A stretch of 64,000 nt of DNA from a virus: IMG/VR virus record IMGVR_UViG_3300025131_011243, positions 1-64,000 of that record; one strand, 5' to 3'. Both the position numbers and the translations under genes were made by a program. Shown in pieces: positions 19,160-61,700 of this stretch (its first letter is position 1; each line of letters opens with the position of its first letter). The notes under the pieces were generated by a model. That model was given only the letters and a program-made list of their open reading frames with translations, was not told the DNA's origin and did not search any database.

Positions 19160-19236
19160 AGCCATTTTTCTTCCTGACGCTCAGTTTATTTACTGAATTC
19201 TGGCTATGGTATCCTCTTATGTCGTAAAACGCAAGG

Positions 19237-19582: not shown

Positions 19583-19625
19583 AATGCATCCTCTAGTTAG
19601 GTTACTGTAATATAGATCGTCTGAT

Positions 19626-21040: not shown

Positions 21041-21042
21041 GA

Positions 21043-40554: not shown

Positions 40555-40980
40555 TCACGATACAGAATCAGCAAACTCAATCGCATACTGCTTCGCCTGA
40601 TCCAATGTCTTAGCAGGACCGTCATACTGAGTCTCATTGCCGCTAGGCGTAGCTGCCACAGGTTCATCTCCGATTCCAAAGTTACTCATAGCTCTATGGC
40701 TCCACCCCCACCAGTTCTGACTTTCCTCTTCGAACCCTATCGAGCAAACATCATGATCATCGCATGAAGCCTCTGGAGCTATACCCTTTTCTTCGATAAG
40801 CATCTTGGCTGTTTCCACATCCCCTATGTAGCACCCGCTGTCAGCGTAGGCGGATTCCATTTCCACCCTTCCATCTTCGTCATTACCCACCTGAGTATCT
40901 TCGGTACGAACTTCATAGCCGTCGAATTTTTCTACGTTGAGCACCTTCTTCTTTAACTGAGCTTGTTTATACCAGTTCAT
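40555..40980 (-). CDS. MNW-tagged protein, 141 aa, unknown
   Basis: Starts MNWYKQAQLK. The body has an acidic beta-rich stretch (GYEVRTEDTQVGNDEDGRVE), two Cys pairs (DSGCYIGD, EASCDDHDVC) and a helical end with KTLDQAKQYAIEFADS. No family recognised. Start overlaps the stop of 40967-41506. Last gene of the leftward tagged operon. Confidence 0.65.
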   Translation of the reverse strand: MNWYKQAQLKKKVLNVEKFDGYEVRTEDTQVGNDEDGRVEMESAYADSGCYIGDVETAKMLIEEKGIAPEASCDDHDVCSIGFEEESQNWWGWSHRAMSNFGIGDEPVAATPSGNETQYDGPAKTLDQAKQYAIEFADSVS

Positions 40981-41506
40981 TGAGATCCTCTTGGGCGGGC
41001 CTTAGACCTTCGCCTTTTACCAATAGTTCAGATTCAGCATACCCACGTTGGAATAGATCTATGACAGCTACAACATCCTGCTTATTAACTACATAAGTAT
41101 CTGGATCAACCCCTTTCTGGGTAGCAAAGAAATTGGCTGTTGACATATCTAAAGTAACAGGAACAACAGGCCCCTTAGGAACCCCTCCTCGATGTACGGT
41201 TATCCACTCTGGCATACCTTGCAATGCCTGCTGAGATAATCTAACAACTTCATCTCTTGCTGCCAAAATTTCATTCCTGAATTCAGGACCATGCATATTG
41301 GCCAGATCTTCCTCGTTTATGCCTAAATCTGAAAGAGCATCATACATATCAACATCATCATCAAACAGATTTGCTATTACATCTGAACCAGATGACGTAT
41401 CCATAAAGTTACCCTGAACATTCAGTAAAGCCTTAAGCCCCCTACTATTAACCTGTTCAGGCCCTAGCTTGCCCGGAAGTTTAGAAGTTTCTTTATACCA
41501 ATTCAT
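40967..41506 (-). CDS. MNW-tagged ADP-ribosyltransferase-like protein (R-S-E type)
   Basis: 179 aa from MNWYKETSKL; the open frame upstream to 41713 overlaps the next gene and is rejected. The order WITVHRGG (Arg), LDMSTANFFAT (S-T-x strand), QRGYAESELLVKGEG (E-x-E-like) matches the Arg-Ser-Glu core of toxin-type ARTs that modify Arg or other residues using NAD+. A helical ~90-residue leader precedes it. This is the tagged protein most like T4 Alt in catalytic layout, though identity is not claimed. Confidence 0.65.
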   Translation of the reverse strand: MNWYKETSKLPGKLGPEQVNSRGLKALLNVQGNFMDTSSGSDVIANLFDDDVDMYDALSDLGINEEDLANMHGPEFRNEILAARDEVVRLSQQALQGMPEWITVHRGGVPKGPVVPVTLDMSTANFFATQKGVDPDTYVVNKQDVVAVIDLFQRGYAESELLVKGEGLRPAQEDLNELV

Positions 41507-43392
41507 TCTACAACCCCAATCGGTTCGAGTACCGTTCCATCCCAAGTTCTCCATTCGCCCAAAGACGATACCTGATATCCCATAGCATTGGGCTTGGGAA
41601 CAAACTCCATGATCGAAACCTGTTCTGGATCTACCTTCGACAGCCCTACGGCATCGCTCAAAAAGAACAAAGGATTTAAAGGACCACCAGCCTCTTCCCT
41701 GAACGTTATCCACTCTTTGTACAAATCAAAACGCTTGTCAATCAATTCATCCGAAGTAAGCCTTCGACGGAACCTTGTATACTTAGTCTCCACCCCAGTG
41801 CCATGGGGCCATGCTTCTCCCACAGGTTCCCACTCCCATTCGTCCTTCTCATTCTGTTCTTCAACTGTTTTGGGGAAAATGAAAGCGTCTGTATATTCAT
41901 ACCCTTCAAGAGTAGCCTTGATGTCAATTGGCATTTCGTCTGTATCTTTTCTGCTGTGGTAGTAGTAGATATTTTTCAACCAAGGTCTATCCGCATCTTC
42001 CCCCTTTGCTGCCATATCTAACATTTGCTCGATTGAGATTTTATTCTTGGCTACTTTCACGCCATCCAGCAACGAACTCTTGATAGCCCTGGCGACATCG
42101 ATGTCGGTCGTAAAGCTGATCGTATCGCTTGCTCCTCCGCCAAGACCTAATCCAAGACCCTGAGATAATTCTTCTCTGGTCTTCAGACCGCTATTGATAA
42201 CTTCATCTCTTGCTGTCGTTACATGGTACAATCTCTGCGGCAAAGGCTTAACTGTTTCGATATTGCCTACGTTAAGAAGGAGACCTCTGTCCCTTGCAGT
42301 TTGGGGATTTATTTCTCCCCTTCCTATGGCACGTTGCATTTGGCCCTTCCATTCTCTCCTTTTGTTCCACCATTCTTTATAGGCATCCTCATCGTCGCCA
42401 TAGCGTTCATCCCATGGACCGGCATAATCCTTTTCAGACATATCCCAAAGATTGGATTGTGACTCTTTATGCCAGTTCATCTTGTCCGCTTCCATTAGGT
42501 CGGCTGACAGGTCACGCCACGCCAGGTCGATCCACGCCTGTTCATGGGTTCCAATCAGAGCATGGTCCACGCCACTGCCATGGATGCCGCTCTCGTGATC
42601 AGAGATGCGGACCTCGATCACTTCATCGCCCCGATCCAGCGTGACGTATTGGCTGAAGGAGCGGGACGAAGGCTCGGTGTACACACTCCAGCCGTGCGAC
42701 CTTGCCGTGTCCGTGACCGCCGCAACGGCCTGCTCGACCCATTCAACTCGGGCATCGTCATCCGCCAAGTTGGGGTCTATCGCCGGAGGCAGATCAATGG
42801 CTTCCGGCTCGGCTACTTCGGCCTCCTCATCTCCAGGTTGATTGGCTTCTTCGACAAGCTGACGATAATATGATCTAGCCAGACTTTCTCCAGCAGGCGT
42901 CATTTGCCCTAAAATCTGATCTGGTTTTCTATTCTTCATCCATTCAGATAATAGATAAGTACCTATCCCCATACTTTGCATTTCATCCACAACCCACACG
43001 CCAGGAACTCCCCATTCATCAGATACTAGACCCACAGCCTCGCCTTGCTCAAAAGCTACAATAGTGTTATTGTATAAATCCTTGCCTTGCAATCTTATTT
43101 CTTCATCAGTTAAATACAAAGCCAAGCCCTTTTCATCTCTAACTATTTCATCATTATCATCTGTTCGCACGTATTTGTTTTTCTCTCCATTCTGCCTAAA
43201 CTCAATAGGCATATCTCCAAATACCTTTTGGGAATGTAAAACAGGATACCCTTCTATCTGCATCCAAGACAGGCCCTCTCTATCCGCATAATCTTCATAA
43301 GCATCAGACGAGATATCTCCTGTACGATGATGGTCTATGAATTCATCCTCTGTCATATCTGTTACATTTTGTGCAAATTTATACCAGTTCAT
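41503..43392 (-). CDS. Composite protein: tag + GNAT + GC-rich insert + second tag + ART-like
   Basis: 629 aa from MNWYKFAQNV. Residues ~85-175: GNAT-like (NTIVAFEQGEAVGLVSDEWG, VDEMQSMGIGTYLLSEWMKN with the acetyl-CoA loop). Residues ~185-304: encoded by a ~61% GC island (42481-42840), reading ARVEWVEQAVAAVTDTARSH ... VEVRISDHESG-like. Residue 305 is a second tag, MNWHKESQSN. Residues ~370-470: ART-like (LPQRLYHVTTARDEVINSGL; GGGASDTISFTTDIDVARAI). C-terminal ~110 residues unknown. Two formerly separate tagged genes appear fused by the insertion. TTG one codon upstream is not needed. Confidence 0.7.
   Translation of the reverse strand: MNWYKFAQNVTDMTEDEFIDHHRTGDISSDAYEDYADREGLSWMQIEGYPVLHSQKVFGDMPIEFRQNGEKNKYVRTDDNDEIVRDEKGLALYLTDEEIRLQGKDLYNNTIVAFEQGEAVGLVSDEWGVPGVWVVDEMQSMGIGTYLLSEWMKNRKPDQILGQMTPAGESLARSYYRQLVEEANQPGDEEAEVAEPEAIDLPPAIDPNLADDDARVEWVEQAVAAVTDTARSHGWSVYTEPSSRSFSQYVTLDRGDEVIEVRISDHESGIHGSGVDHALIGTHEQAWIDLAWRDLSADLMEADKMNWHKESQSNLWDMSEKDYAGPWDERYGDDEDAYKEWWNKRREWKGQMQRAIGRGEINPQTARDRGLLLNVGNIETVKPLPQRLYHVTTARDEVINSGLKTREELSQGLGLGLGGGASDTISFTTDIDVARAIKSSLLDGVKVAKNKISIEQMLDMAAKGEDADRPWLKNIYYYHSRKDTDEMPIDIKATLEGYEYTDAFIFPKTVEEQNEKDEWEWEPVGEAWPHGTGVETKYTRFRRRLTSDELIDKRFDLYKEWITFREEAGGPLNPLFFLSDAVGLSKVDPEQVSIMEFVPKPNAMGYQVSSLGEWRTWDGTVLEPIGVVE
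42481..42840. other. GC-rich island inside a composite gene
   Basis: By hand count 221 of 360 bases are G or C (61%), against about 45% in the adjacent line 42841-42900 and similar values on the other side. Its left edge coincides with the base before the internal tag ATG (42480). Codons here prefer G/C at the third position, unlike the rest of the gene. Confidence 0.8.
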
Positions 43393-43856
43393 CAATACCT
43401 CACCATATGAGCAGAACCATCTGAATTCGTTGATTCAATATCAAAACCAAAACGATCCTCCAGAACGTGGACTAACCTTGGATTAATAACCCATAATCTC
43501 ATCATCGTTTTCATATCATACTGACTGCTGAAGCTTTCGTAATACTCTATGGCCTCTTTGATCAGCTTGATTCCTACCAATCCTTTCCCTCTAAATTCCG
43601 GCAAAACAGAAATGTCAAATGAAAACACAGATACGTCATCCTCATTACCCCATCCGCTGGAAATCGCACCAATCACACGACCATCCTCAATAGCCAGATG
43701 AGATAAGTCCTTGGTAGAATCCGGCCTTACTCCACTGTCTTCAAAGACCTTATCAGCTTGATCGGCCAGGTCGTAGATATCCTCATCAAGATCGATGTCT
43801 ATATCATCTTCCAATGAGAACGGAACGATATTCACAGCTTGCTTATACCAGTTCAT
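43392..43856 (-). CDS. MNW-tagged GNAT acetyltransferase
   Basis: 154 aa from MNWYKQAVNI. GNAT pattern: AIEDGRVIGAISSGWGNEDD, SFDISVLPEFRGKGLVGIKL (R-x-G-x-G acetyl-CoA loop), MRLWVINPRLVHVLEDRFGF (N...L...GF end). It transfers an acyl group from acyl-CoA to an unknown amine. Its stop and the next ATG share bases (TGATG), and its own ATG overlaps 43843-44391. Confidence 0.8.
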   Translation of the reverse strand: MNWYKQAVNIVPFSLEDDIDIDLDEDIYDLADQADKVFEDSGVRPDSTKDLSHLAIEDGRVIGAISSGWGNEDDVSVFSFDISVLPEFRGKGLVGIKLIKEAIEYYESFSSQYDMKTMMRLWVINPRLVHVLEDRFGFDIESTNSDGSAHMVRY

Positions 43857-44391
43857 CTTTGTCCTCATTCTGATCTAGAATCATAACAGCATTCGAATCT
43901 GGGTACTTGTTGACGAATCCCATGTCCTCGTACCATTTTCTTAGCTTCTTGGAATTCAATCCAGGTTTCCCTCTGCCAACTTGGCCATGAATGGGAGCCG
44001 GTTCGATAACAACCTTAACTCCAATCTCTTTAGCAACAGACAATAATTGCTGCATAGCTTCATTTCCTCTGCCGGATTTTCGTTCCGAAGGATCGACAAT
44101 AATACCGGAAAGAGTGATTTGATCATCCCTAGCAGAGTAAGAGTCTCCTACCATGACATAGTTCTTATGGGGATATAGATCATTACGAGACAGACCCAGC
44201 TTAACCTTGCCGTCTTGACTGACTAGCGTAGGATAAGTGTAGGATCCAATGTTCATAGCATTGGGGTTCATGCTCAGGTCTTCCATGTTCATGGCTTCTT
44301 CATAAGTCCAGCCATATTCTGCCATTTTATCAGCAATCATTTGGACCAGGTTGACATTGGACTCGGTCTGTGATTCTTTATACCAATTCAT
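43843..44391 (-). CDS. MNW-tagged GNAT-like acetyltransferase
   Basis: 182 aa. Tag MNWYKESQTE, nearly identical to the internal tag MNWHKESQSN of the neighbouring composite gene. GNAT features: LSGIIVDPSERKSGRGNEAM (R-x-x-G-x-G), KVVIEPAPIHGQVGRGKPGL, KLRKWYEDMGFVNKY. First gene of the leftward operon 44391->40555. Confidence 0.75.
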   Translation of the reverse strand: MNWYKESQTESNVNLVQMIADKMAEYGWTYEEAMNMEDLSMNPNAMNIGSYTYPTLVSQDGKVKLGLSRNDLYPHKNYVMVGDSYSARDDQITLSGIIVDPSERKSGRGNEAMQQLLSVAKEIGVKVVIEPAPIHGQVGRGKPGLNSKKLRKWYEDMGFVNKYPDSNAVMILDQNEDKDELV

Positions 44392-44472
44392 AGCTTATCT
44401 AATGTTCTATAAATGGGGGTCATTATCCTTGCTGATAGAAGGTTATGCTATCCTTATTGCCGAAATTGAGGT

Positions 44473-45228
44473 ATGAACTGGTTTAAGAAGATCTCGTCCG
44501 TCACCTTCTCCCCTTCCGGGACCCATGGTATAGCCCAACCCATGAGCCTGCTGGATCTATCTTCAGACCTATTTAGATTCGCAATTAAGAACAAAATAAT
44601 ATCAGGAAAACACAATAGCGTAGACGTAGATGGAGACAGCGACTGGATGTCAGGCTTGGGCATTATTAACTTCTACCTGACAGACGATGCTACCCTAGAA
44701 GATGTTAAAAGAGTCGTAGATGCCTATAACGAAAGCCAAGCAGGACAGGTCTATATTCAGGTGGGAAGGCAAGAACAATCCGGTATGATGGCTGGAGATG
44801 TTGTTCGACTGAACGTTATCAAAAATACTACATCAGACAGAGAAGAAGTGCCAGAAATGAACTTGGCTAATGCCAATGCCTATAAAATGATGCAAGTACT
44901 CAAAAGGTTTGGACTAAATATTGAAGATATCAATAATGGATGTATCGATGTGGACGACTACATGGGGGCAAGACAGTTGATGACCGATCAAACATTAAAA
45001 GAACATGAACAAAAATTCGACATGAATAGAGACTGGGACCAAATGATGGGGACATATCAAGAACCAGAACCATGGGAACAATCAGAGCCAGAAGAACCAA
45101 CGCCAGAGAATGTTCATGGTCCTGACTTTGACTTGAATAGAATAAACCAATACCTGTCAAGATTAGACGGTATCGCTCAATGGACCATTGACAACGATCT
45201 TCCTGATCGCAGAATTTGCTGGAGCTAA
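44473..45228 (+). CDS. MNW-tagged protein, 251 aa, unknown
   Basis: Starts MNWFKKISSV; TTGCCGAAATTGAGGT abuts the ATG on the plus strand. The core is alpha/beta (GIINFYLTDDATLEDVKRVV; GQVYIQVGRQEQSGMMAGDV). The C-terminal ~75 residues are Glu/Pro-rich, then helical (NRINQYLSRLDGIAQWTIDN). Convergent with 45225-45461, overlapping by 4 bp. No family recognised. Confidence 0.65.
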   Translation: MNWFKKISSVTFSPSGTHGIAQPMSLLDLSSDLFRFAIKNKIISGKHNSVDVDGDSDWMSGLGIINFYLTDDATLEDVKRVVDAYNESQAGQVYIQVGRQEQSGMMAGDVVRLNVIKNTTSDREEVPEMNLANANAYKMMQVLKRFGLNIEDINNGCIDVDDYMGARQLMTDQTLKEHEQKFDMNRDWDQMMGTYQEPEPWEQSEPEEPTPENVHGPDFDLNRINQYLSRLDGIAQWTIDNDLPDRRICWS

Positions 45229-46249: not shown

Positions 46250-46630
46250 CTAGAACATGAAGCCGTCTTCGTCGTCTTGTCTTTCTCGCTCAACTATATA
46301 GGGCTCCTCTACCTCATACGCTTCACTACCATAGGCTGGATCTATAGTATGAAAAGAACTATCACTCTCCGGGGTCCACCCTTTATCAGCCTTAGCTTGA
46401 TACTCGGATGCTTTCTGATCGGAAGAATTCTGATCTCTGGTTCCAAGGTCAGCAGCCCAACGAGATCCATCTGTCATTTCGGCAACAATATAAAAGGATT
46501 CTCCATAGATGTGACCACTGGGATTCTCCATATCAGCTAACTCTGGATCTTGTCCAATCACCCCATAATCTGATCGGGCAAAAACTCGAACGACCCTATC
46601 TTTGTACCCTGAAGTTTTAACAATCCTCAT
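46250..46630 (-). CDS. MRxIRT-tagged protein, 126 aa
   Basis: Starts MRIVKTSGYKDRVVRV, a variant of the second tag. The body is an acidic beta-type domain (GVIGQDPELADMENPSGHIY; FYIVAEMTDGSRWAADLG). No known family. Lies between tagged genes of both classes. Confidence 0.6.
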   Translation of the reverse strand: MRIVKTSGYKDRVVRVFARSDYGVIGQDPELADMENPSGHIYGESFYIVAEMTDGSRWAADLGTRDQNSSDQKASEYQAKADKGWTPESDSSFHTIDPAYGSEAYEVEEPYIVERERQDDEDGFMF

Positions 46631-46641
46631 AACGATATCCT

Positions 46642-47271
46642 TTATATGTACTCTACCTTGGCTACTTTCAGTGGACCATTGAACGCAATACTACCACCTC
46701 TTCCAACAAATTGCAACAAATCCTCTTGACTCATGATGGATTTCATCTTACGAGCAACATCCTTGACCATCTCTGAATAAGAGGCGTCAACATTATCAGA
46801 CCCCTCCATCATCTCGTTTGTCGCATGAAATCCATCAAATGCCTCGTCCATCGAAACGTTGCCCCACTCCGGATTACGATCCTCTTGGATCATTCTCCTG
46901 TAAGCCTCCCAGACCTCTTTGACCCCCGGCTCGCTAGAAGAAGGATTTGTATCAGATAAATAGTCTGCAACCTGATCTTCATCAGGCATAGCTAAGTTGT
47001 AGTCAGGAACAGCATGGATAACAGCTACACCTTGAGCCTTGGTAATGCTGGAGATCTCTTTAGCATACTTAATTGCTGCGTCTTTTGAAAAGAAACAATA
47101 AACGCTATCCGGGTCTGAGGGGTTTCCGCCAAAAAACCCTCCGCTCCAATTGCCTGGTCCCGATCCTCTGGGAGAGATAATTCCATCTTGCTCAATCTTT
47201 TGGGCAAGAGAAGCTATCGTTCCATGATAAACGATGTTGGACAAAGATTGGGAAGTCTTGTACCAGTTCAT
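46642..47271 (-). CDS. MNW-tagged ADP-ribosyltransferase-like protein
   Basis: 209 aa. Tag MNWYKTSQSL. ART-like elements: NIVYHGTIASLAQKIEQDGI (H-G-T strand), SVYCFFSKDAAIKYAKEISS (aromatic-S strand and helix), GVAVIHAVPDY, and a helical insertion with a conserved-looking C-terminus (LQFVGRGGSIAFNGPLKVAK). The catalytic acid is not certain. The ATG is preceded by GAGCGATATATCGAACTGT with no Shine-Dalgarno. Confidence 0.55.
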   Translation of the reverse strand: MNWYKTSQSLSNIVYHGTIASLAQKIEQDGIISPRGSGPGNWSGGFFGGNPSDPDSVYCFFSKDAAIKYAKEISSITKAQGVAVIHAVPDYNLAMPDEDQVADYLSDTNPSSSEPGVKEVWEAYRRMIQEDRNPEWGNVSMDEAFDGFHATNEMMEGSDNVDASYSEMVKDVARKMKSIMSQEDLLQFVGRGGSIAFNGPLKVAKVEYI

Positions 47272-47360
47272 ACAGTTCGATATATCGCTCTAAAGTTCCT
47301 GGATCACGACGCTTTAAGCGACAAACTGTCGGGATTCAGAGTGTCTGATTATCAGATATC

Positions 47361-47576
47361 ATGAATTGCGACATGAAAAACATATCCACCTACGTCTCTT
47401 GGGAAGTTTGGCAAATGATGCGACCAGCATTCAGGGCGGTCTCTGATAAGTACGGAAACCAATTTAGGCAAAGTATTTGTCGAGGATTTGATAAAGGAAG
47501 AAACCCTTCATTCCTAGCACAGAGGATACAACAAAGAATGTTAAAAGACCCGCAAGGAACCCAATATGAGGATTAA
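47361..47576 (+). CDS. Small helical protein, 71 aa
   Basis: Begins MNCDMKNISTYVSWEVWQMM; the start looks like the tag with Trp3 changed to Cys (TGG to TGC), which may be chance. The alternative start is MKNIST at 47373. The rest is a basic amphipathic helix (AFRAVSDKYGNQFRQSICRG) and KDPQGTQYED. Overlaps the kinase gene by 11 bp. Confidence 0.5.
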   Translation: MNCDMKNISTYVSWEVWQMMRPAFRAVSDKYGNQFRQSICRGFDKGRNPSFLAQRIQQRMLKDPQGTQYED

Positions 47577-48111
47577 CCTTTTCGGAGCCCCAGGCAGTGG
47601 TAAATCAACAACTGCCGCATGGCTGTTTTCAGAACTCAAAGTAGCTGGATATAACGTCGAACAAGTCACAGAATATGTCAAGTTCTGGACCTACATCCCC
47701 AGAGAAGTAAAGCCTTGGGATCAAGTCTACATCTTAGGCAAACAAATCCATCAAGAAGCGACGATCTTAGCCGGAGGAGCAGACCATATCGTTTCTGATT
47801 CTCCGCTGCTTATAGCTGTGTTCTACTCTTTCTATTATAACAACCCAATGCAATACGATCTACTGAACATAGCCCTTAGATTCGAAATGCACTATCCATC
47901 CATCAACATCTATCTCGAACAAGATGATATTATGGAATTCTCGGATACCGGCAGATATCACGGTAAAGAAGAATCTGCAAAAATCGATGCAGATATGAAA
48001 GACTATCTTACGATGTGGACTAATGGGAAGTTTACAAGATTAAAAGCAACGGATAGGGAAAATATAATATCCAATGTAGTCGATGCCTTGTCTAGTCATC
48101 AAAAAACCTAA
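47566..48111 (+). CDS. P-loop kinase / AAA_28-type NTPase
   Basis: 181 aa. Walker A at 6-14 (LFGAPGSGKSTTAAWLFSEL), then VTEYVKFWTYIPREVKPWDQ, an acidic/Ser pair VSDSPLLIAVFY like the DS-x-x-P of NadR/thymidylate-kinase-like enzymes, and YLEQDDIMEFSDTGRYHGKE as a lid. It likely phosphorylates a nucleoside or cofactor precursor using ATP; ribosylnicotinamide is one candidate given the nucleoside hydrolase. Its 3' end overlaps the convergent 48092-48451. Confidence 0.75.
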   Translation: MRINLFGAPGSGKSTTAAWLFSELKVAGYNVEQVTEYVKFWTYIPREVKPWDQVYILGKQIHQEATILAGGADHIVSDSPLLIAVFYSFYYNNPMQYDLLNIALRFEMHYPSINIYLEQDDIMEFSDTGRYHGKEESAKIDADMKDYLTMWTNGKFTRLKATDRENIISNVVDALSSHQKT

Positions 48112-48451
48112 TCTTGTGACCAGGATACATGTTGATCAAATTCAATGTAGCGTCCTCAACAAGTGGCCTACTCCACCCTTCTGATGACAATAGTTTGGCA
48201 GACCCAAAATCTATTACTCTCATCGATATAAACCTTCGTCCTATGCGACCGTAGGAAAATATCCTGCCCAACTTCTTCTTCATAGAAATGTTTTGATCTT
48301 CAAATGTCCGATGATCGGTCTTGACTTCTTCTTTACTCAAGACGATAAGCTCATTGTTCAGAGAAGACCACCACCAATAAGATACACAATCTTCTTCATG
48401 ACCTATTGAACAATAATTAAACGGAACCCACTCATCTAAACTTATCTCCAT
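48092..48451 (-). CDS. Hypothetical protein, 119 aa
   Basis: From MEISLDEWVPFN, whose ATG directly follows the element TGTCGATAGTAAT, so the message is probably leaderless. Trp-rich middle (DCVSYWWWSSLNNELIVLSK) and a basic C-terminal half. Unknown. Confidence 0.6.
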   Translation of the reverse strand: MEISLDEWVPFNYCSIGHEEDCVSYWWWSSLNNELIVLSKEEVKTDHRTFEDQNISMKKKLGRIFSYGRIGRRFISMRVIDFGSAKLLSSEGWSRPLVEDATLNLINMYPGHKIRFFDD

Positions 48452-48464
48452 ATTACTATCGACA
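48452..48464 (-). promoter_or_regulatory. Promoter-like element TGTCGATAGTAAT abutting ATG
   Basis: Minus strand. Nearly the same bases recur at 51033-51048 and 55983-55997. There are 0 nt between the element and the ATG. Confidence 0.5.
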
Positions 48465-48476
48465 AAATTTCGGCAC

Positions 48477-48503
48477 AAAAAAAGCGACCCTAATAGGTCG
48501 CTC
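48477..48503 (-). terminator. Rho-independent terminator
   Basis: Stem AGCGACC/GGTCGCT with a 6-nt loop, followed on the minus strand by seven T. Ends the leftward MRxIRT operon 50373->48524. Confidence 0.85.
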
Positions 48504-48523
48504 TACCGCACATGCCGGGAGGT

Positions 48524-48910
48524 TTATCCAAGATATGACGTTATTTCGTATTTGCCCGAAGGCATAACACACCAAGATAACGTTAGCATAGCATTCTTAA
48601 CAGGAGATCTCTGACCGTCTACTTCCCATACCAAATCAAAGTCTGCCCGTTGGTCGGCAGCTTGAGGGTCTCCACATTCCTTACCCCCAAGTAACATGCC
48701 ATTCCAATTCGACCCCTCTTCATCTATGGGGTAAACATCGTGGGCTTTGAGGATATCAAACAAACCCTGAAGCGGGATTTGCTCGAAATACTTGCCTGTC
48801 AAAAGATCGTATATCTTCCGGCTTATGCTACGCTTCACCTGAGGAGGCAAAACTTTTGGCATTGGCAAGGCACTTTCATTTTCCCATCCCGCTGTCCTGA
48901 TTACCCTCAT
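48524..48910 (-). CDS. MRxIRT-tagged protein, 128 aa
   Basis: Starts MRVIRTAGWENESALP, the second tag class. The body is VKRSISRKIYDLLTGKYFEQ, an acidic turn, then a beta-rich end (FDLVWEVDGQRSPVKNAMLT). Unknown family. Overlaps the next gene upstream by ATGA; followed by the terminator at 48477-48503. Confidence 0.65.
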   Translation of the reverse strand: MRVIRTAGWENESALPMPKVLPPQVKRSISRKIYDLLTGKYFEQIPLQGLFDILKAHDVYPIDEEGSNWNGMLLGGKECGDPQAADQRADFDLVWEVDGQRSPVKNAMLTLSWCVMPSGKYEITSYLG

Positions 48911-49410
48911 GCCCCCATTCTCCTCTCAGCCATCATCTCCTGATGAGATTCCCAAGCACTTTGAGACCTCTCTTCTAGATACTTAATGAACTCTTCGTCC
49001 AAAGGTTCCGGAACAACTCTTTGACCCTTACATTCGTAACATTGAACGTCATATCGCCCGCTTGTGTATTCTTCTGCAAAATCTGGATCTTCAGCAAAAT
49101 CCTCTCCCGTCAATCCACCCGCATCAATGGATGGATTGACATGAGTACCCTTGCCTTGGCAAGTTTCACAAACCACCCATTTGAAAGGAATCATTTTCCG
49201 TTCCGTTGTATCGTAATCCAGAGACCCGTCAGGACCCACAGGGGCTGGCATCTCTACCAAAGCTTGCATGTTCTTGATATCAAGCTTTTCGTACCAACTG
49301 CCTTTGTTGCCAGCCATGACTCGACTGTCGCCCATGTAATTGAGGTCGTCCATGATAGCTCTTGCATCTGAGTTAGACATCTTGTATCCTTTTGTTCTTA
49401 TGGTTCTCAT
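48907..49410 (-). CDS. MRxIRT-tagged protein with DnaJ-type zinc finger
   Basis: 167 aa. Tag MRTIRTKGYK. Residues ~88-145 contain CETCQGKGTHVNPS and CYECKGQRVV, two C-x-x-C-x-G-x-G-like pairs as in the DnaJ zinc-finger region, separated by an acidic loop. It may bind unfolded protein or nucleic acid. A separate tagged J-domain protein is at 19626-20354, so the two halves of a DnaJ-like function are on different tagged proteins. Confidence 0.7.
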   Translation of the reverse strand: MRTIRTKGYKMSNSDARAIMDDLNYMGDSRVMAGNKGSWYEKLDIKNMQALVEMPAPVGPDGSLDYDTTERKMIPFKWVVCETCQGKGTHVNPSIDAGGLTGEDFAEDPDFAEEYTSGRYDVQCYECKGQRVVPEPLDEEFIKYLEERSQSAWESHQEMMAERRMGA

Positions 49411-49413
49411 GGT

Positions 49414-50373
49414 TTAATATCCATCTGGGTAGTCATTGGGATTATAATCTCTGTCCCAAGCTTCTTGTCTTTCTATTTCATCCATAGGATCATATTCTGG
49501 TTCATCATATCCAACGTCACTCGTATCCAAGTCATCGTCGTCTATGGCGGGACCCCATCTCTCTTCTATCGTTTGGAACAATTCTTTTGGCATTTGGATT
49601 TTCGTTTTGCCGTCTATGATAAGAGTTGCTCCATTAACAAGCCTTTCATCAGATCCCTCTGGGGGATATCCGGGATCTCCATTCGATAGGGTATGAACAC
49701 CTGGATCATAGTATCCTGAGCTTTCGTAATCAATAGATATTTCCATCGTATGATCGGAAGGGTTCGCTCCTAATGAAGAGAAATGTTGCATGATAAATGC
49801 AGAGACATCATCCGGTACGGCTGTATCGTTTCCTTCTTCTATAATCTCGTTCGTCTCTTCGGGTATGTATAATTCAACTGTGATGCTTCCGTATACTCCG
49901 CTCCAAGATTTGGAGCGTCCAGCACTCTTAAGCCATCCAGACCTTCTGCCGACTCTTATCCAATCTCGCTGATCCATCTGAAGCTTGTTCTCAACGGGCT
50001 GTTCTGGTTGCGTTGGTTGTTCTGGTTGAGTTGGTTGCGTTGGCAAAGGGCCATATTTAATCTCGTCTTCAGACGTCACGTTGAATCCCTTACCCTTAAG
50101 TGAAGCGATTGCCTGTTGTAACTGTTCGGCAGGCATAGGAACCCTAAACGATTGTCCTGTAAACATCCTCTCATTAAAATTCTGTGGCTTAACACTCTTA
50201 AGGTATTGTTTGGCTCTATTGCTTACAAATTCCAACACCACAGGACCACTACCAGGACCTCCATCATGCAATAATATATCCGCTTCTCTACGGCGACGAG
50301 AGGTCTCCATTTGAGCAGGAGTTCTTTCGTCTTCCCATGCCGTCTTCCATCCCGATGTTCTGATTACTTTCAT
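49414..50373 (-). CDS. MRxIRT-tagged protein with GGPGSGP motif
   Basis: 319 aa. Tag MKVIRTSGWK. Residues ~35-45 read LLHDGGPGSGPVV; the HDGGPGSGP string is one that I recall from phage head-associated proteins. A Pro/Gln/Glu linker (PTQPEQPTQPEQP) leads to MDQRDWIRVGRRSGWLKSAG, which matches MSKNEWRRIGKQAGWWNKQ in 51123-51548. The C-terminal half is acidic and ends in DYNPNDYPDGY. Function unknown; the motif suggests a virion component. Confidence 0.65.
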   Translation of the reverse strand: MKVIRTSGWKTAWEDERTPAQMETSRRRREADILLHDGGPGSGPVVLEFVSNRAKQYLKSVKPQNFNERMFTGQSFRVPMPAEQLQQAIASLKGKGFNVTSEDEIKYGPLPTQPTQPEQPTQPEQPVENKLQMDQRDWIRVGRRSGWLKSAGRSKSWSGVYGSITVELYIPEETNEIIEEGNDTAVPDDVSAFIMQHFSSLGANPSDHTMEISIDYESSGYYDPGVHTLSNGDPGYPPEGSDERLVNGATLIIDGKTKIQMPKELFQTIEERWGPAIDDDDLDTSDVGYDEPEYDPMDEIERQEAWDRDYNPNDYPDGY

Positions 50374-50421
50374 ACTGAATTCTCCTGCTTAGAACTTATC
50401 TATACCCTTCTGCTCAAATCG

Positions 50422-50691
50422 TCAGTTTCCTTCAATGCTATCGAATAAAGTGGAATCAGGTTTATTCTTGACGGAAGTTTTCTTGGGTTCAGGAACCTCT
50501 TGATTCAAGGATTTCAATATCCTGAATACGTCAGAAAATTTACTGTACTTGATGCCCCACTTTAATCGCTGTAGCAAATGAGAATTAGATCCAGTATAAA
50601 CATACCGTTTGCCATCAATATAGACTACAAGCCTGCCCGTAGAGTCGTGAGCCGCAATTTGGACTTCAGTAGCAATCTTAAACCAGTTCAT
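50422..50691 (-). CDS. MNW-tagged small protein, 89 aa
   Basis: Starts MNWFKIATEV. Beta-hairpin-like middle (STGRLVVYIDGKRYVYTGSN) followed by a helix and a polar tail. The ATG is immediately preceded by TCGAATATAATGT on the minus strand, with no ribosome-binding site. Unknown function. Confidence 0.65.
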   Translation of the reverse strand: MNWFKIATEVQIAAHDSTGRLVVYIDGKRYVYTGSNSHLLQRLKWGIKYSKFSDVFRILKSLNQEVPEPKKTSVKNKPDSTLFDSIEGN

Positions 50692-50704
50692 ACATTATAT
50701 TCGA
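50692..50704 (-). promoter_or_regulatory. Promoter-like element TCGAATATAATGT abutting ATG
   Basis: CGA core, then TATAAT on the minus strand, 2 nt before the MNW start codon. Predicts a leaderless message. Confidence 0.5.
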
Positions 50705-50730
50705 TTATTTCATATGATGAACCTGGAAAC

Positions 50731-50773
50731 AAAAAAAAGGCCCCTCCGTCCATGCGTAGGGACGAAGAGGCTA
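50731..50773 (-). terminator. Rho-independent terminator
   Basis: An imperfect GC-rich stem (GCCCCTCCGTCC with GGACGAAGAGGC) followed on the minus strand by an eight-base T run (A-run 50731-50738). Ends the transcript of 50818-51018. Confidence 0.75.
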
Positions 50774-50817
50774 GAAACATGAAGCATTTACTCTATCTAT
50801 ATCGTCATATTGACGGA

Positions 50818-51018
50818 TTATACATCATCGTCAAAATCATCTTCTATAGGAGCGAACTCAATAAGATAAGTCCCACCAACAATGATCTCTTGACCCTTTT
50901 CGGTCATGAAACATGCTCTCTCTTTTGAATATGAAATATTAGTGACATTTTCCCAAGCAAGGAAGGGCTCCTTGGGATTAGGGGTATATAACACTACTCT
51001 ACCTTTTCTGTCTGACAT
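50818..51018 (-). CDS. Hypothetical protein, 66 aa
   Basis: Starts MSDRKGRVVLYTPNPKEPFL behind AGGAG. A small beta-rich protein (NVTNISYSKERACFMTEKGQ, EIIVGGTYLIEF) with an acidic end (DDFDDDV). A single-gene transcript bounded by a promoter-like element and a terminator, so it is probably expressed on its own. Unknown. Confidence 0.65.
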   Translation of the reverse strand: MSDRKGRVVLYTPNPKEPFLAWENVTNISYSKERACFMTEKGQEIIVGGTYLIEFAPIEDDFDDDV

Positions 51019-51032
51019 GTTTGTTCTCCTAT

Positions 51033-51048
51033 GTATTACCTATCGACA
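51033..51048 (-). promoter_or_regulatory. Promoter-like element TGTCGATAGGTAATAC
   Basis: Minus strand, 15 nt before ATG 51018 with AGGAG in between. Almost identical to 48452-48464. Confidence 0.5.
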
Positions 51049-51075
51049 GAACTCAAATTGTAATTGAATTTTTGG

Positions 51076-51102
51076 CACAAAAAAGCGGCACGAATGCCGC
51101 TT
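51076..51102 (-). terminator. Rho-independent terminator
   Basis: An 8-bp perfect stem AAGCGGCA/TGCCGCTT with CGAA loop and a T-run on the minus strand. Ends the transcript of 51123-52862. Confidence 0.85.
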
Positions 51103-51122
51103 GGAAAGGCGTGAAAGTAATT

Positions 51123-51548
51123 TTATGCCATCTGCTGTTGCTGAGGTTGCTGAGGTTACTGTTGTTGCTGCTGCCCTTGTTGCTGTTCCTGCTGTATCTC
51201 TTGGATCTGCTGTTGTATGCCCTGTAGCCTTTGCTGTAATGTCTGCTGTAGTTGTTGCAATTTCTGTAAATCAACCTGCTGATCATGCGAACCCACGCCA
51301 GCAGTTTGCGGACCAGAAACTGGTTGCTGGGAAAAAGTACCAGTGTCCTAATCTACCACTTCTTCCATTTCCTGTTGAGGCTGTTGAGGCTGCTGAGGCT
51401 GTTGTTGAGTCTGAGGCTGAGTCTGCTTGTTCCACCACCCCGCCTGCTTACCTATCCGCCTCCACTCATTCTTGCTCATCTTAAACGTATAACCACCATC
51501 GTCTTTCAAGATGAGTTGGGAACCTGATTTGCTAGATAGTTTTTTCAT
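51123..51548 (-). CDS. Gln-rich coiled-coil protein with in-frame UAG and UAA
   Basis: From ATG 51548 the frame reads MKKLSSKSGSQLILKDDGGY, a motif SKNEWRRIGKQAGWWNKQ, a Gln/Pro run and EMEEVVD, then TAG (51348-51350). The same frame continues DTGTFSQQPVSGPQTAGVGS and a heptad-like Gln coil (VDLQKLQQLQQTLQQRLQGI) to TAA (51156-51158), then PQQPQQQQMA and a final TAA. Each internal stop is one C-to-T change from a Gln codon. Without readthrough the product is 66 aa. Other frames of this repetitive stretch are also open, so caution is needed. Confidence 0.5.
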
Positions 51549-52095
51549 TATATTCTCCTACTGGACCTCGATGGGGTGCCTCTTCTTTGCGAAAATCCCA
51601 ACTACGATCTACATGTTTATTTTCAGCCAAACCACTTTCATATGGCTGATGTTCTTTGATTATGGAAATAAGGTAATCCGCATACCCCACTTCTTCATCA
51701 TGAGTAACTATGTCTTTCCTGGAATTGAATGGAATACCTCTTAGCTTGAGCCACCCTTCCATCAACTTAACAGCCCCAGGTTTCCCAGCTTGCAAAAACT
51801 GAGTATAAAGTTCTTCAAAATCTGTATCGCCTTCAATGATATCAGCCTCTTCCTCTTCCGTAGGGAATTTGTCATTCCATTGCCAAGATTGGGCTAATTT
51901 CCTTTCTGCTACGTTTCTCACCTCTTCCTCTTTGGCCGGAATTCCCCAACCTCCGCAAGGTATGCAAGACTTAAGATCAGGAAGAGGAGGAACCTCACTC
52001 TTTGGATAAAACATCAGTCTATCACATTCAGGACATCTGATATATTCAATCATGCCTTGATCCCGCTTGTATCCCGCTGTCCTGATTGTTCTCAT
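51532..52095 (-). CDS. MRxIRT-tagged protein with zinc-type Cys pairs
   Basis: 187 aa. Tag MRTIRTAGYKRDQGMIEYIR. Two C-x-x-C pairs (CPECDRLMFYPKSE and CIPCGGWGIP) at ~20-50 form a probable zinc ribbon. Then acidic helices (FPTEEEEADIIEGDTDFEEL) and a domain with GVGYADYLISIIKEHQ-like features. Unknown role. The ATG follows GGGGAAAG. Confidence 0.65.
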   Translation of the reverse strand: MRTIRTAGYKRDQGMIEYIRCPECDRLMFYPKSEVPPLPDLKSCIPCGGWGIPAKEEEVRNVAERKLAQSWQWNDKFPTEEEEADIIEGDTDFEELYTQFLQAGKPGAVKLMEGWLKLRGIPFNSRKDIVTHDEEVGYADYLISIIKEHQPYESGLAENKHVDRSWDFRKEEAPHRGPVGEYNEKTI

Positions 52096-52137: not shown

Positions 52138-52164
52138 CTATTTGATTTGGAAGAACCAGTTCAT
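52138..52164 (-). CDS. Tag-only mini-ORF MNWFFQIK
   Basis: ATG at 52164 overlaps the TGA of 52161-52862 exactly as in other tagged pairs, then the frame ends at TAG after eight codons. It is either the stub of a deleted tagged gene or a free tag peptide. Too short to call by statistics; the position and the tag are the evidence. Confidence 0.4.
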   Translation of the reverse strand: MNWFFQIK

Positions 52165-52862
52165 GCCGCTTGACCCATCTGGTTCAAAACATTACCTATG
52201 TAAGTCTCTATCCACCTGGCTACTTGTTCTTCATTATATTGACCTGACTCAAGATATTGTAAAGCATACTGCGACATTGTATTCGATACGTTCTGTCCCC
52301 AAGAAACCTTTTCCTTATCGTCAGCCCCCAACGAATGAGTCCTGTTTCCAAAAGAGATACCATTCGCACTTGCCCACTGCTGAACTGCCACCTGAATGTC
52401 GTTGACAGCTTCTTTGTTGCTAAAATGGATAACTACTCTGTCATTGTGACCCAAATAAGCAGTCGCCGTTGAAGGAACCTTGTAATCTAAATTAGATTGA
52501 TAAGATGAAGCTATTGGCTGTAGGTATTGAAATAAACCTCCTATGCCTCCAATGACTTTTTCAATGTCTTCATCACTTGGTGTGAAATATAGTTTGTAAT
52601 TGCCGGATTCTTGAGGCAAACCTTTTTGGACATCCCATTGAGCCCAAGCAGGATTGCTAACACTAGAACTATTTACCGCAGCTATGTATTGTTGCTTAAT
52701 TTCCGTAGACACATTGGCTGCCGCCTGTTGCCAACCAGGATGAGTCGTTATCGCTTTATACAAAAATCCAGACAACTGGGCCTGATCTTTACTTGACAGT
52801 ACAGAAACTAGACCAGAGTGGGATATCTGTATGACTTGATTAGCTTGTTTGAACCAGTTCAT
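52161..52862 (-). CDS. MNW-tagged protein, 233 aa, unknown
   Basis: Starts MNWFKQANQV, identical in the first eight residues to 21043-22356. Two parts: helical residues ~15-75 (SGLVSVLSSKDQAQLSGFLY; WQQAAANVSTEIKQQYIAAV) and an alpha/beta part with YLGHNDRVVIHFSNKEAVND and a helical end (YNEEQVARWIETYIGNVLNQ). The ATG directly follows TTGCCGAAATATACAT. No known family. Confidence 0.65.
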   Translation of the reverse strand: MNWFKQANQVIQISHSGLVSVLSSKDQAQLSGFLYKAITTHPGWQQAAANVSTEIKQQYIAAVNSSSVSNPAWAQWDVQKGLPQESGNYKLYFTPSDEDIEKVIGGIGGLFQYLQPIASSYQSNLDYKVPSTATAYLGHNDRVVIHFSNKEAVNDIQVAVQQWASANGISFGNRTHSLGADDKEKVSWGQNVSNTMSQYALQYLESGQYNEEQVARWIETYIGNVLNQMGQAA

Positions 52863-57182: not shown

Positions 57183-58055
57183 TTAGGTAGCAGCAGTTAC
57201 TTCTATCTTTGAGACTGCGTAATCATTGACGATTACGATGCCTACTTCTTCGTAGATGACCCAGCCGAGACGTAACTTTTTCGGATCGTCAGCAGGGAGT
57301 ACGGTGATATCCTGACGGATCGGGAAAGCACCGACTGTTTCTGGCGAGGCGACGACGAGAACGACTGTCGAGGTCATACGAGACGATACGTGAATGTCAG
57401 CGGTCCACAAGTGACCATAAAGGCCGGTGGTGATGATTTCACGCTGAGTGGCTTCGTCAAAGAAGTCTTTGCCGAAGACACGGATCGTTGCATACTGGTT
57501 AGCATGGCAAACGATCTTAGCACTGACGAGGTCATGCTGTTCGATCAAACGGAAAGCCGTGTTGAGCGAAGCAACAGTCAAAGCGCCAACGTTGGTGACG
57601 ATCTGGTCGCCCTTGGTGTCGGCAGCGGCGATCAGTGCGTTGAAGATATTCGTATCTTCTTCCTTCTGAATTGCTTCTTTGGCCTTGATCTGAGCACGGT
57701 CAACGATGAAGAATCTACGTGCCTTGATTTCGGACAAACGAACGGTTGGGTTCGCAGCGATTTCGAAGGTTGGGACCAGAATTTCTTCGCCTTCCTGAAT
57801 CTGATCAGGAACGGCACCACGACGAGCTACGACGTGAGCGATAGCTGCAACGTCACGCTCGTAACGAGCGAGAGCACCCTGTGGCAGTTCGTCAACCATG
57901 AGAAGCTTACGACCGACCGCTTGGTACTCAAGAGCACGACGGATAGGCTCTACCATAGCCTGGGCAAGAGCGGTACGACCTTCGTCGGTCTCTAGTGCCT
58001 GGGCGATGACCATTTCCTTCTGCTCATCAGACAGATTGTTTTTCAGAAAACTCAT
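57183..58055 (-). CDS. Major capsid protein, HK97-fold
   Basis: 290 aa. Recognised by the layout of a short HK97-type shell protein: N-terminal helix region (DEGRTALAQAMVEPIRRALE), ARYERDVAAIAHVVARRGAV, a P-domain with LSEIKARRFFIVDRAQIKAK, and the C-terminal ETVGAFPIRQDITVLPADDP, LRLGWVIYEEVGIVI. This is the coat protein that forms the icosahedral head. No obvious propeptide. G/C-ending codons are frequent, as expected for the most expressed gene. Last gene before the terminator at 57124-57150. Confidence 0.85.
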   Translation of the reverse strand: MSFLKNNLSDEQKEMVIAQALETDEGRTALAQAMVEPIRRALEYQAVGRKLLMVDELPQGALARYERDVAAIAHVVARRGAVPDQIQEGEEILVPTFEIAANPTVRLSEIKARRFFIVDRAQIKAKEAIQKEEDTNIFNALIAAADTKGDQIVTNVGALTVASLNTAFRLIEQHDLVSAKIVCHANQYATIRVFGKDFFDEATQREIITTGLYGHLWTADIHVSSRMTSTVVLVVASPETVGAFPIRQDITVLPADDPKKLRLGWVIYEEVGIVIVNDYAVSKIEVTAAT

Positions 58056-58731: not shown

Positions 58732-61700
58732 CTATTGGCGGTTATACGCCTGTTTCCATTGAGCGTCGTCGTCGGCTTGCGCCGCAGCCACACGCTGTCC
58801 GAGCGTGAACAACTGCTGGAGTTGTGAGCTAAGCTCATTAGGCTTGGAAGCCTTATACAACTCGTCGCCAACTTCGCTACTAATTACAGGGGCCTTACCT
58901 TCGATTCCCCTCGACGCCGTGTCGAATCCCTTTTGGCTTGCGAACAAAGACTTTTCATAGTCTTTGATCTGAGCAGGTTTGTAAGCCTGAAGCTCTGCTA
59001 CTTTTTGCTGAAGTTGTTCGGACTGGATAAGTCCAGCCTGAATCATTTTTCCAGCTACTCGATAAGCTTCATTCATACTTGCCTCGGATTCCTGTGCATC
59101 GCTACTAGCGATGACGGTGCCTTTGTCTCTAGTTTGTTTCTCAGGGTCGATGTCATTTTCATCTTCATGCCCCAAGAGTTGGTTATCAGCCGGAATTTCC
59201 GGATGATCTTCAGGAGAGTCAGGTTTATCGCCCATACTTTCCTGTTCATGTCCCATCATCGAAACATTACCTTCGCCCTTCACTCCTTCGAGTGCTTCTT
59301 CGTCGCCGTCGCCTCTTGGCTTACGCTTCGAGCCTTCGGGGATACCGGCCAAGTCCTCATTTTTCTGGACTGGCTGAATATCTTCATCTTCATCAACGGG
59401 CTTAGGAGCTTCGAGTTTCTTATTTTGTGCCTCAAGGATTCTGTTTGCCAAAGCATTCATTCGATCCTTGGGGTTTCCAAATCCGTTCATTGCGGCCAGT
59501 TCAGCTTCTTTCTGTAGATCTTCTTCGGATGCAGCCTGTGAAGTACCGGCTCCATCTTCGCCGCCTGTGTAGCGATCATCGCCGCCTGTGTATCCCTGTT
59601 CCTCTTCATGTCCCATGGATGGGGAACCGACAGGAATTTCGGGCTGAGGCTTATCCTGAGGATTCAGGTCTGAAGGCTCTTGCCCGATAGTGGCGTTATC
59701 TCTTGGGACTTCAGGGTCGTTGGCCTTAGGAGGATCTTCATGCCCGATGGTTCCGGCATCTTCTCCGCCCGTATAAGGCTTAACTTCCTCTGAGTCTTGT
59801 ACGTTTTCGTGTTGAATCTGAGTAACTTGAGCTTCTTTATTCTCGCCTTCGATTGCGGCGATGACATCTGAAAGATCCATATTAATCTTTCCTGTTTGTC
59901 CAAAATCTGATCGCATGTTCATGGCTTGAATAAACTCCTGTTCCTGTTCTTGTTCTTCTCCGAACAATCCCGTCTCTGCGGGACGTGCTTCTTCTTCCAT
60001 CAAATCATCGTCGCCTTCTTTGAATTCATCGCCTACAGGAACTTCTGGGTTATCTTCTTCAATAACCTCATCTTCGATTCCTTCTTTTTCTCCAACAACG
60101 TCATCAATTACATCTTCAGCGGCATCTTCTACGACGCCATCTGGGTGATGATCTTCTGCTGCGATATCTTCAGGAGATTCGCCAAGAGCCTCATCGAGAC
60201 CTCGGTCTACTTCTTCAGTTACGCCAGGTTCAGCCTTCTCAAGTTCTGTGATAAGGTCGATGACCTTTTGAGCAACACCTTCGCCTTCCATCATTTCCAC
60301 ACCTTCGCCGCCGACTTCGTCGCCGCCGAATGGATCAACTTCATCATCCAGATCATCGATTCCGCCAACTTCGACTGGGATATCTTCAACTTCGTCAGTT
60401 TCCATCAATCCTGCGAGGTCATCGGCAAATTTATGAACTGGAGAAGCAAGAGCTTCCTTGAGGGAACCGCAACGAGAAACTGCTTCTCTGATTGCGTAAC
60501 CGCTGCGAACCTGATGCTCGACGCACTCTTCGTCGCCGTCTCGTTTGTCCTGCCAGATGCTGGCAAGCTTGACGGCCAATCCATCGGTATAAACGTCTGC
60601 GTTCTTCAACGAACTGCAAACGCAATCGTAAATTGGCTTACCTTCGCAAGGACCACTGAGGGCCAATGCATTTTCGCCAAAACGACGAGCTAGTTTTTCT
60701 CGGCAACTTTCGATTGGAAAAGTACCGGATACTGAGAATGCCTTCTTGTAATCGTCAACAACTGTACCAACCTTACTCGCCAGCTTGTTAAGGCCGGAGT
60801 TCTTGTCGGCTTTAACCTTCATGATGAGATCCGTCTTTTCACGGATGCTCATCTTATCGAAGTCAGCTTCAGCAACATTAAGGGCTTCTAGACCCTTGAG
60901 CAGTTCTTTGCGTGCTCTGCTGCAAGACGGGCATTCATCGCCAGCGATCTTAGGAACCCAACGCCATTCGGCGTAGGCATTCTTAGGATTCTTGGCATCA
61001 ACGGCATACTGAACCATATACTTGGTTCCGGTATCCATGCACATTCTCAAGCCATTTTCAAGCTTAATGGTGTTATTCTTACCTGTGGCAGGGCTAACGC
61101 TGCCAAGTTCGATTTCGCCTTCGGCCAATTTCTGAAGAGCTTCAGGAGTCAGACGAGTTGAGGCAGCGACCGGGATCTGAGGACCTTCGCCCTCTTCCGG
61201 AACCTCAAAGCCTTCGCCTTCGAATCCTTCAGCTTCTTCGGCACCCTTTTCATCAGAGGTAGTACCAGACCATTCCCAAACCTCGACATCGATCTTGATC
61301 GTACCCTTCGAACCGCAGTTATTGCATTCGAACTTGCCGCTGATAACATCAACGTCTTCCGAACCGCAAACCGGGCAGATGGATCCAGGAGGCAGTGGGC
61401 TAAGGTCGCCTTCAAGACCTTCTTCGCCGCCCAATTCATCCGGAGTAGTGCTCAGGCTTTCGACAGGAGCAGCACCGGCATCAGGAGGCTGAGGTAGGGA
61501 AGCGCCAGCACCAGGTGCTTGTGCGGCTCCGCCTTGTCCACCCATTTCGCCGCCGAACATTTGAGCTTCTTTAGTTCGTTCTGCTCTTGCGGCGGTCTTG
61601 GTTTCGGCGTCGTCAGAAGCTACGGGCATTGCCCCACCGGCTCCGCCTCCGCCAGCGACTCCCGCACCCATCATGGGCTTGGGTTCGCCAAGAACATCAT

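What the first reader, a model, noticed from the sequence alone, without database searches (positions are those of the whole stretch)
46250..52095. Second N-terminal tag, M[RK]xIRTxG[YW], on five clustered genes
Seen: MRIVKTSGYK (46250-46630), MRVIRTAGWE (48524-48910), MRTIRTKGYK (48907-49410), MKVIRTSGWK (49414-50373), MRTIRTAGYK (51532-52095). Bodies differ (zinc pairs, DnaJ-type zinc finger, GGPGSGP protein). The class is confined to 46-52 kb and is interleaved with MNW genes, suggesting a second address or a partner signal.
Basis: partly seen in the sequence, partly recalled or inferred. Interest (0 to 1): 0.75.

Follow-up and report, generated by a model that had tools for sequence, protein, structure and literature searches.

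The report
Phage N-terminal tags: predicted capsid-loading signals
A group of giant bacterial viruses puts short interchangeable start-tags on dozens of unrelated proteins, and the tags match a motif running through the virus's own head-assembly protease and scaffold, so they probably load these proteins into the virus head for delivery into the next host cell.

Summary
Five adjacent proteins start M[RK]x[IV][RK]TxG[YW]. Five were observed against 0.001 expected, and their codons and bodies differ. It is not confined to this genome: a DNA pattern for the tag gives 45 hits against 7 backward controls in 50 relatives, and 60 tagged proteins share only MKIIKTxxYxxK. The tag is an add-on: an untagged Xanthomonas-phage homologue of 48907-49410 begins exactly at the Met after the tag. 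The tag is not an independent second address. The same DUF5661 body carries this tag in three relatives and the MNW tag in another, and both tags are enriched for [KR]-x-A. That motif is invariant (38 of 38) in the propeptide of the phage's prohead protease and repeated in the fused scaffold (KxAS 321 against 45 expected). Tagged genes of this class crowd the protease (41 of 44 within 15 kb). The cargo includes ADP-ribosyltransferase, Acb1-like, Thoeris-inhibitor, pyrophosphatase and lysozyme families, typical of injected effectors. Bacillus phage G, the closest isolate, has its own tag, MKRLIKK[AS]. Best reading: a capsid-targeting and processing signal that works like phage T4's CTS but is unrelated in sequence and predicted protease specificity. 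Packaging and cleavage are inferred, not shown.

The parts
46601..46630 (-). tag MRIVKTSGYK of ORF 46250-46630
48881..48910 (-). tag MRVIRTAGWE of ORF 48524-48910; R-T-A at residues 5-7
   Evidence: homologue in G045 with variant start MKLISTNKYAAA directly upstream of its protease gene
49381..49410 (-). tag MRTIRTKGYK of ORF 48907-49410 (DnaJ-type zinc-finger-like CxxCxGKG...CxxCKGQ)
   Evidence: untagged homologue in Xanthomonas phage Rb1 aligns from Met11
50344..50373 (-). tag MKVIRTSGWK of ORF 49414-50373
52066..52095 (-). tag MRTIRTAGYK of ORF 51532-52095 (zinc-ribbon-like CxxC pair); R-T-A at residues 5-7
51348..51548 (-). ORF MKKLSSKSG...EWRRIGKQAGWW, probable decayed tag of the same class
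   Evidence: similar ORFs in relatives start MKLIKNASGK (G047) and MKIVKTAGGK (G043); likeness judged by eye
46642..47271 (-). MNW-tagged, ADP-ribosyltransferase-like by motif (IVYHGT)
   Evidence: no Pfam or PHROG hit of its own
50422..50691 (-). MNW-tagged small protein MNWFKIATE
52161..52862 (-). MNW-tagged protein MNWFKQANQ
40555..45228 (.). cluster of MNW-tagged genes (40555-40980, 40967-41506, 41503-43392, 43392-43856, 43843-44391 on minus; 44473-45228 on plus), two of them GNAT acetyltransferases
14710..22356 (-). second cluster of MNW-tagged genes, including PolyA_pol/HD, 5'-nucleotidase-like and DnaJ bodies
57183..58055 (-). major capsid protein
   Evidence: phrog_2522 major head protein E=1.3e-63; 53% identical to Bacillus phage G major head protein
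58732..64000 (-). prohead protease fused to scaffold-like region (2306 aa, runs to base 65652 of the record), starts MAFYKTATTEN, second site NVKFASVQ, intein after GSSMG
   Evidence: protease domain matches phrog_18299 head maturation protease (relative G010) and a Gordonia phage capsid maturation protease

Best explanation
The M[KR]xI[KR]TxxY tag, like the MNWYKxAQ tag beside it, is an N-terminal capsid-targeting and processing signal. During head assembly the tag docks the protein onto the protease-scaffold core, so it is enclosed in the prohead. The prohead protease then cuts after the alanine of a [KR]-x-A site in or just after the tag, the same motif that fills its own propeptide and scaffold, which frees the cargo. 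The cargo (host-takeover and counter-defence enzymes, plus some inner-head proteins) leaves with the DNA at infection. SHOWN here: the tag is a modular add-on, it recurs, it is swapped with MNW, it is enriched for [KR]xA, that motif is invariant in the protease propeptide and over-represented in the scaffold, and the genes sit next to the protease. INFERRED: enclosure in the head, cleavage at KxA, and injection.
For: Modularity: 60 proteins with the tag have 5% mean column identity but consensus MKIIKTxxYxxK; the Xanthomonas phage Rb1 homologue of 48907-49410 begins exactly where the tag ends (39% identity from Met11, E=2e-32). Swap: DUF5661 body with MNWYKQA in G004 and MKVIKSKKY/MKIIKSxSY in G036, G037, G042. 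Shared core: [KR]xA within residues 5-18 in 63% of this class and 54% of MNW against 11.7% of other genes (p=4e-21, 2e-26), still enriched when K5xA7 is excluded (p=1e-8). Link to head maturation: in 38 protease propeptides K and A of one KxA are 38/38 with S next at 32/38, and K of the first site 37/38; scaffold part KxAS 321 against 45 expected, z=42, with AxK, KxL, K..A, KA at or near expectation; protease identity by phrog_18299 E=2e-11. Place: 41/44 within 15 kb of the protease against 404/1035 other genes. Cargo: InPase, 2H-SAK, DUF5661, DUF5662 with this tag; ART-PolyVal, Acb1, Tad6, lysozyme, GNAT, zeta-like kinases with MNW; InPase, 2H and lysozyme are listed as domains of phage polyvalent proteins predicted to be injected (PMC5512222). 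Generality: Bacillus phage G has MKRLIKK[AS], 10 of 10 motif matches at gene starts, bodies including HGTS ART-like proteins. Cargo link: DUF5661 lies inside a DUF2213 protein between terminase and a DUF2184 protein in Vibrio phage VPs20 and carries a T4-CTS-like start, VKTYLEFINE, in huge phage LR756500 (T4 ipIII MKTYQEFIAE).
Against: No virion proteome of a tagged phage was available, so packaging and cleavage are unproven. About 37% of this class lack an obvious KxA within residues 5-18. After the alanine, scaffold sites prefer S and then Q, whereas tags have more Q, K, G and N, so the match is not exact. The scaffold z-score is inflated by relatedness of the 40 sequences (the window's own protein alone: 49 against 20, z about 6). 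The AlphaFold model of the protease domain was mediocre (pLDDT 64) and Foldseek gave no significant match. Position 9 tyrosine and position 4 isoleucine are conserved, which cleavage alone does not require. The Rb1 homologue works without a tag.
Confidence: 0.72

Rival explanations
1. The tag targets proteins to the head interior but is not cut: it is a docking peptide for the scaffold or shell, and the KxA resemblance reflects shared scaffold-binding rather than protease cleavage.
For: Conserved I4, T6 and Y9 besides K5; about a third of tags lack KxA within residues 5-18; T4 work separates targeting residues (4, 7) from processing residues (8, 10) in one peptide (PMC9026906).
Against: KxA is the shared element of both tags and is kept when its position shifts; it is invariant in the protease propeptide, followed by S.
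Confidence: 0.15
2. Address to another place: a phage nucleus, the host membrane or a replication site.
For: A short conserved N-terminal tag on diverse proteins is what any sorting signal looks like.
Against: No phiKZ-type nuclear shell protein in 16 lineage records including 476-548 kb ones and phage G (BLAST-level sensitivity only, several records fragmentary); tags are basic and have no hydrophobic stretch; crowding at the protease gene and the motif shared with protease and scaffold are unexplained.
Confidence: 0.07
3. Descent: the tag is the remnant of one duplicated ancestral gene family whose bodies diverged.
For: Adjacent genes on one strand; weak full-length similarity between two pairs (E about 0.01-0.02, driven by the tag).
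Against: Bodies belong to different Pfam families (DUF5661, DUF5662, 2H-SAK, InPase, DnaJ zinc finger); the Rb1 homologue lacks the tag; same body with MNW in another genome.
Confidence: 0.03
4. Translation-initiation or mRNA-level element read as peptide conservation.
For: It sits at the start codon.
Against: Synonymous codon differences at most tag positions and no conserved upstream DNA.
Confidence: 0.02

Closest known systems
Phage T4 capsid targeting sequence (CTS) of IPI, IPII, IPIII and Alt, cut by gp21
   Same: About 10-residue N-terminal peptide shared by unrelated cargo proteins; cargo includes an ADP-ribosyltransferase; predicted processing by the prohead protease; the protease and core proteins carry the same site (PMC9026906; T4 ipII and ipIII both start MKTYQEFIAE).
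   Different: No sequence similarity (MKIIKTxxY against MKTYQEFIAE); predicted cut after K-x-A, not after [LI]xE; protease fused to a scaffold-like region of over 1500 aa with KxA repeats; two interchangeable tag types; many more tagged genes.
Processed head and ejection proteins of phiKZ and SPN3US
   Same: Jumbo phages; many inner-head proteins with N-terminal propeptides removed by the prohead protease; SPN3US gp53 and gp54 share an identical 15-residue N-terminus (PMC5694885).
   Different: Cut at S/A-x-E; most propeptides exceed 100 residues; no shared short tag across dozens of unrelated genes.
Polyvalent proteins of phages and conjugative elements
   Same: Overlapping domain repertoire (ART, InPase, 2H, lysozyme) and location near late genes; predicted injection (PMC5512222).
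   Different: Here mostly single-domain proteins, each with its own tag, rather than one giant multidomain protein.
Herpesvirus assemblin and its scaffold (from memory, a lead only)
   Same: Maturation protease fused to scaffold, cutting after alanine before serine.
   Different: No homology tested; no N-terminal cargo tags known.

Membership tests
T4-type capsid targeting sequence | Short N-terminal peptide shared by otherwise unrelated proteins | tested here: met
T4-type capsid targeting sequence | Sequence similar to MKTYQEFIAE with an [LI]xE cleavage site | tested here: not met
   consensus MKIIKTxxYxxK, no conserved glutamate; T4 sequences. So it is not a member of this family by descent
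T4-type capsid targeting sequence | Site in the tag matches the site in the phage's own protease and core proteins | tested here: met
   K-x-A in tags, propeptide (38/38) and scaffold
T4-type capsid targeting sequence | Protein is enclosed in the prohead and the tag is removed | not testable with these tools
   needs virion mass spectrometry; the published phage G proteome (Gonzalez 2020) is not held
Prohead (head maturation) protease, for ORF 58732-65652 | Homology to known head maturation proteases and position next to the capsid gene | tested here: met
   phrog_18299 E=1.8e-11 in relative G010; Gordonia phage Stormageddon gp13 capsid maturation protease; adjacent to MCP
Prohead (head maturation) protease, for ORF 58732-65652 | Protease fold by structure | tested here: inconclusive
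   pLDDT 64, no Foldseek match with E<0.001
Polyvalent proteins | 2 to 15 effector domains in one polypeptide | tested here: not met
   tagged proteins are mostly under 300 aa and Pfam finds at most one or two domains in those shown singly
Phage-nucleus import signal | Genome encodes a nuclear shell (chimallin) protein | tested here: not met
   phiKZ gp54 query: no match in 16 lineage records, several of them fragments
Secretion signal peptide | Hydrophobic segment after a basic N-terminus | tested here: not met
   no hydrophobic stretch in residues 1-16 of the class (position table)

The most novel reading that the evidence does not exclude
A whole lineage of giant phages related to Bacillus phage G uses a family of interchangeable N-terminal addresses of about 10 residues (MNWYKxAQ, MWYKxAQ, M[KR]xI[KR]TxxY, MKI[FY]KxA, MKRLIKK[AS]) to load dozens of counter-defence and takeover enzymes into the capsid, read by a K-x-A-specific protease-scaffold. 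A proteome can then be searched for pre-packaged effectors by their first 10 residues.
Probability: 0.55. Interest if true: 0.85.

Novelty: new variant of a known kind. Interest (0 to 1): 0.78.

Why it matters
If true, the first 10 residues of a gene predict which proteins of unknown function in huge phages ride in the head and enter the host with the DNA. That would turn anonymous genes into candidate early effectors and counter-defence factors, and would give a short tag for loading foreign proteins into very large phage heads. It also predicts a cleavage specificity (K-x-A|S/Q) for a fused protease-scaffold that is testable in a cultivated phage (phage G) whose virion mass spectra have already been published.

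Tried and rejected
Pfam and PHROG searches with the five bodies gave no significant family; only weak DnaJ zinc-finger likeness for 48907-49410. AlphaFold plus Foldseek on the protease domain was uninformative. Co-occurrence of the two tags across 50 records was not significant (p=0.15), partly because the records are fragments. Phage nucleus import: no shell protein found. tblastn of 48524-48910, 51532-52095 and 46642-47271 against phage genomes found nothing. A K5xA7 scan of phage G showed no excess, but de novo N-terminal clustering then found that phage G uses a different tag. Single-hit matches in the wide viral pattern scan include chance hits inside longer frames, so that scan was not used for counting. 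No held paper mentions MNWYK with phage, and no paper describing these tags was found.
Full report
OBSERVATION. The five starts are real: 46250-46630, 48524-48910, 48907-49410, 49414-50373 and 51532-52095, all minus strand, ATG. The chance of five such starts among the record's genes is negligible (shuffled mean 0.001). Similarity stops at about residue 10 and codons vary synonymously, so this is selection on a peptide.

SETTING. The window is the first 64 kb of a 122,591-base virus record. The gene at 57183-58055 is a major capsid protein (phrog_2522, E=1.3e-63), 53% identical to that of Bacillus phage G. Upstream of it in transcription order, with one 190-aa gene between, lies a 2306-aa protein, 58732-65652. 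Its N-terminal part matches a capsid maturation protease of Gordonia phage Stormageddon, and the same part of an intein-free relative matches phrog_18299 head maturation protease (1.8e-11). It carries an intein after GSSMG and a long scaffold-like tail. It begins MAFYKTATTEN.

RECURRENCE. Using the capsid protein, 80 related loci were fetched. In 50 whole records a degenerate DNA pattern for the tag matched 45 times against 7 for the backward control; the MNW pattern matched dozens of times against one. Sixty tagged proteins align only in MKIIKTxxYxxK (5% mean column identity), 93 MNW proteins only in MNWYK (4%). Within the records read in stretches, the class occurs in runs beside the protease gene: 41 of 44 within 15 kb against 404 of 1035 other genes, p=2e-13, and nearly always on the protease's strand.

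THE TAG IS AN ADD-ON. The only phage-database homologue of 48907-49410, from Xanthomonas phage Rb1, aligns end to end from Met11 and lacks MRTIRTKGYK (39% identity, E=2e-32). The DUF5661 body carries MNWYKQA in G004 but MKVIKSKKY, MKIIKSESY and MKIIKSKSY in G036, G037 and G042. So the classes can replace each other, which argues against two independent addresses.

THE SHARED CORE. Without choosing any tag in advance, [KR]xA over 1684 called genes from 24 virus records shows one spike, at residue 5: 92 genes against about 14 at other positions (the start chosen for a gene preferred a tag-like ATG where one was available, which affects few genes). It contains MNW genes, this class, the protease itself (MAFYKTA, MSFKKRA, MAMYKRA) and one capsid protein. 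Tagged genes without K5xA7 still have KxA shortly after more often than others (33-44% against 9.7%, p=1e-8). In 38 protease propeptides two KxA sites stand out from variable sequence: K 37/38 with A 25/38, and K 38/38 with A 38/38 followed by S 32/38. In the scaffold-like tail KxA is 2.3-fold and KxAS 7-fold over shuffles, while reversed and shifted controls are not enriched (the window's protein alone 49 against 20). After the alanine, S (3.2-fold), Q and F (2.5-fold) are over-represented; MNW tags mostly read KxAQ or KxAK. Another head-module protein of this record, 69021-70361, has internal SFNLKQA, SFNLSKTAQ and FNWKEAQ. This is what a prohead protease cleavage motif looks like; cleavage itself is inference.

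CARGO. With this tag: DUF5661, DUF5662, 2H-SAK phosphoesterase, inorganic pyrophosphatase, RyR, DnaJ zinc finger. With MNW: 2'-5' RNA ligase/Acb1, P-loop kinase and zeta-toxin-like, GNAT, lysozyme, ART-PolyVal, Thoeris inhibitor Tad6, PolyA polymerase, DnaJ. [quoted passage not shown] In Vibrio phage VPs20 DUF5661 is part of the DUF2213 protein between terminase and a DUF2184 protein. In huge phage LR756500 it follows a start, VKTYLEFINE, that resembles the experimentally established T4 CTS MKTYQEFIAE, and all five K-x-[YF]-x-E-F-[IL]-N-E matches in LR756500 and LR756501 lie at gene starts with no control matches.

OTHER TAGS. Bacillus phage G itself has MKRLIKK[AS]: 10 of 10 motif matches in its frames of 60 aa or more, within the first 400 kb, are at gene starts, on unrelated bodies including two with the ADP-ribosyltransferase-like HGTS motif. 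Its protease gp19 has FPVKIAG and LVKTAAKVVKIAP, and gp20 begins MSKKISRLKKTA. A 333-kb relative uses MWYKxAQ and G044 uses MKI[FY]KxA. Each lineage thus has its own variant around a hydrophobic-K-x-A/S core.

READING. Best explanation: capsid targeting plus processing, T4-CTS-like in logic (PMC9026906: targeting by residues 4 and 7, processing by 8 and 10) but not a member of that family, because sequence and cleavage-site tests fail. Confidence 0.72. The main alternative is docking without cleavage (0.15). A phage nucleus is not supported by the searches made here. The phage G virion spectra are the decisive data; the paper is not held here.

Noticed in passing
58732-64000 (gene runs to base 65652 of the record): An intein interrupts the prohead protease right after GSSMG; relatives have inteins at the same or nearby spots, others none.
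   Followed up: partly
41503-43395: Two MNW proteins fused in one frame (second MNWHKESQ start at 42480), as if a stop codon was lost between neighbouring tagged genes.
   Followed up: no
LR756500 and LR756501 (loci L298-L303): Huge phages of up to 735 kb with T4-CTS-like starts K-x-[YF]-x-E-F-[IL]-N-E on unrelated genes.
   Followed up: partly
L273-L292 (Bacillus phage G, first 400 kb): A distinct N-terminal tag MKRLIKK[AS] on about a dozen unrelated genes, some with ADP-ribosyltransferase-like HGTS motifs.
   Followed up: partly
G044 (loci L270-L272, L197): Several small ORFs start MKIKLSKxQWxxIGxxxGW; the W..IG...GW motif also occurs inside window ORFs 49414-50373 and 51348-51548.
   Followed up: no
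54035-55669: GHKL-type ATPase-like protein by eye, near the capsid genes; role unclear.
   Followed up: no
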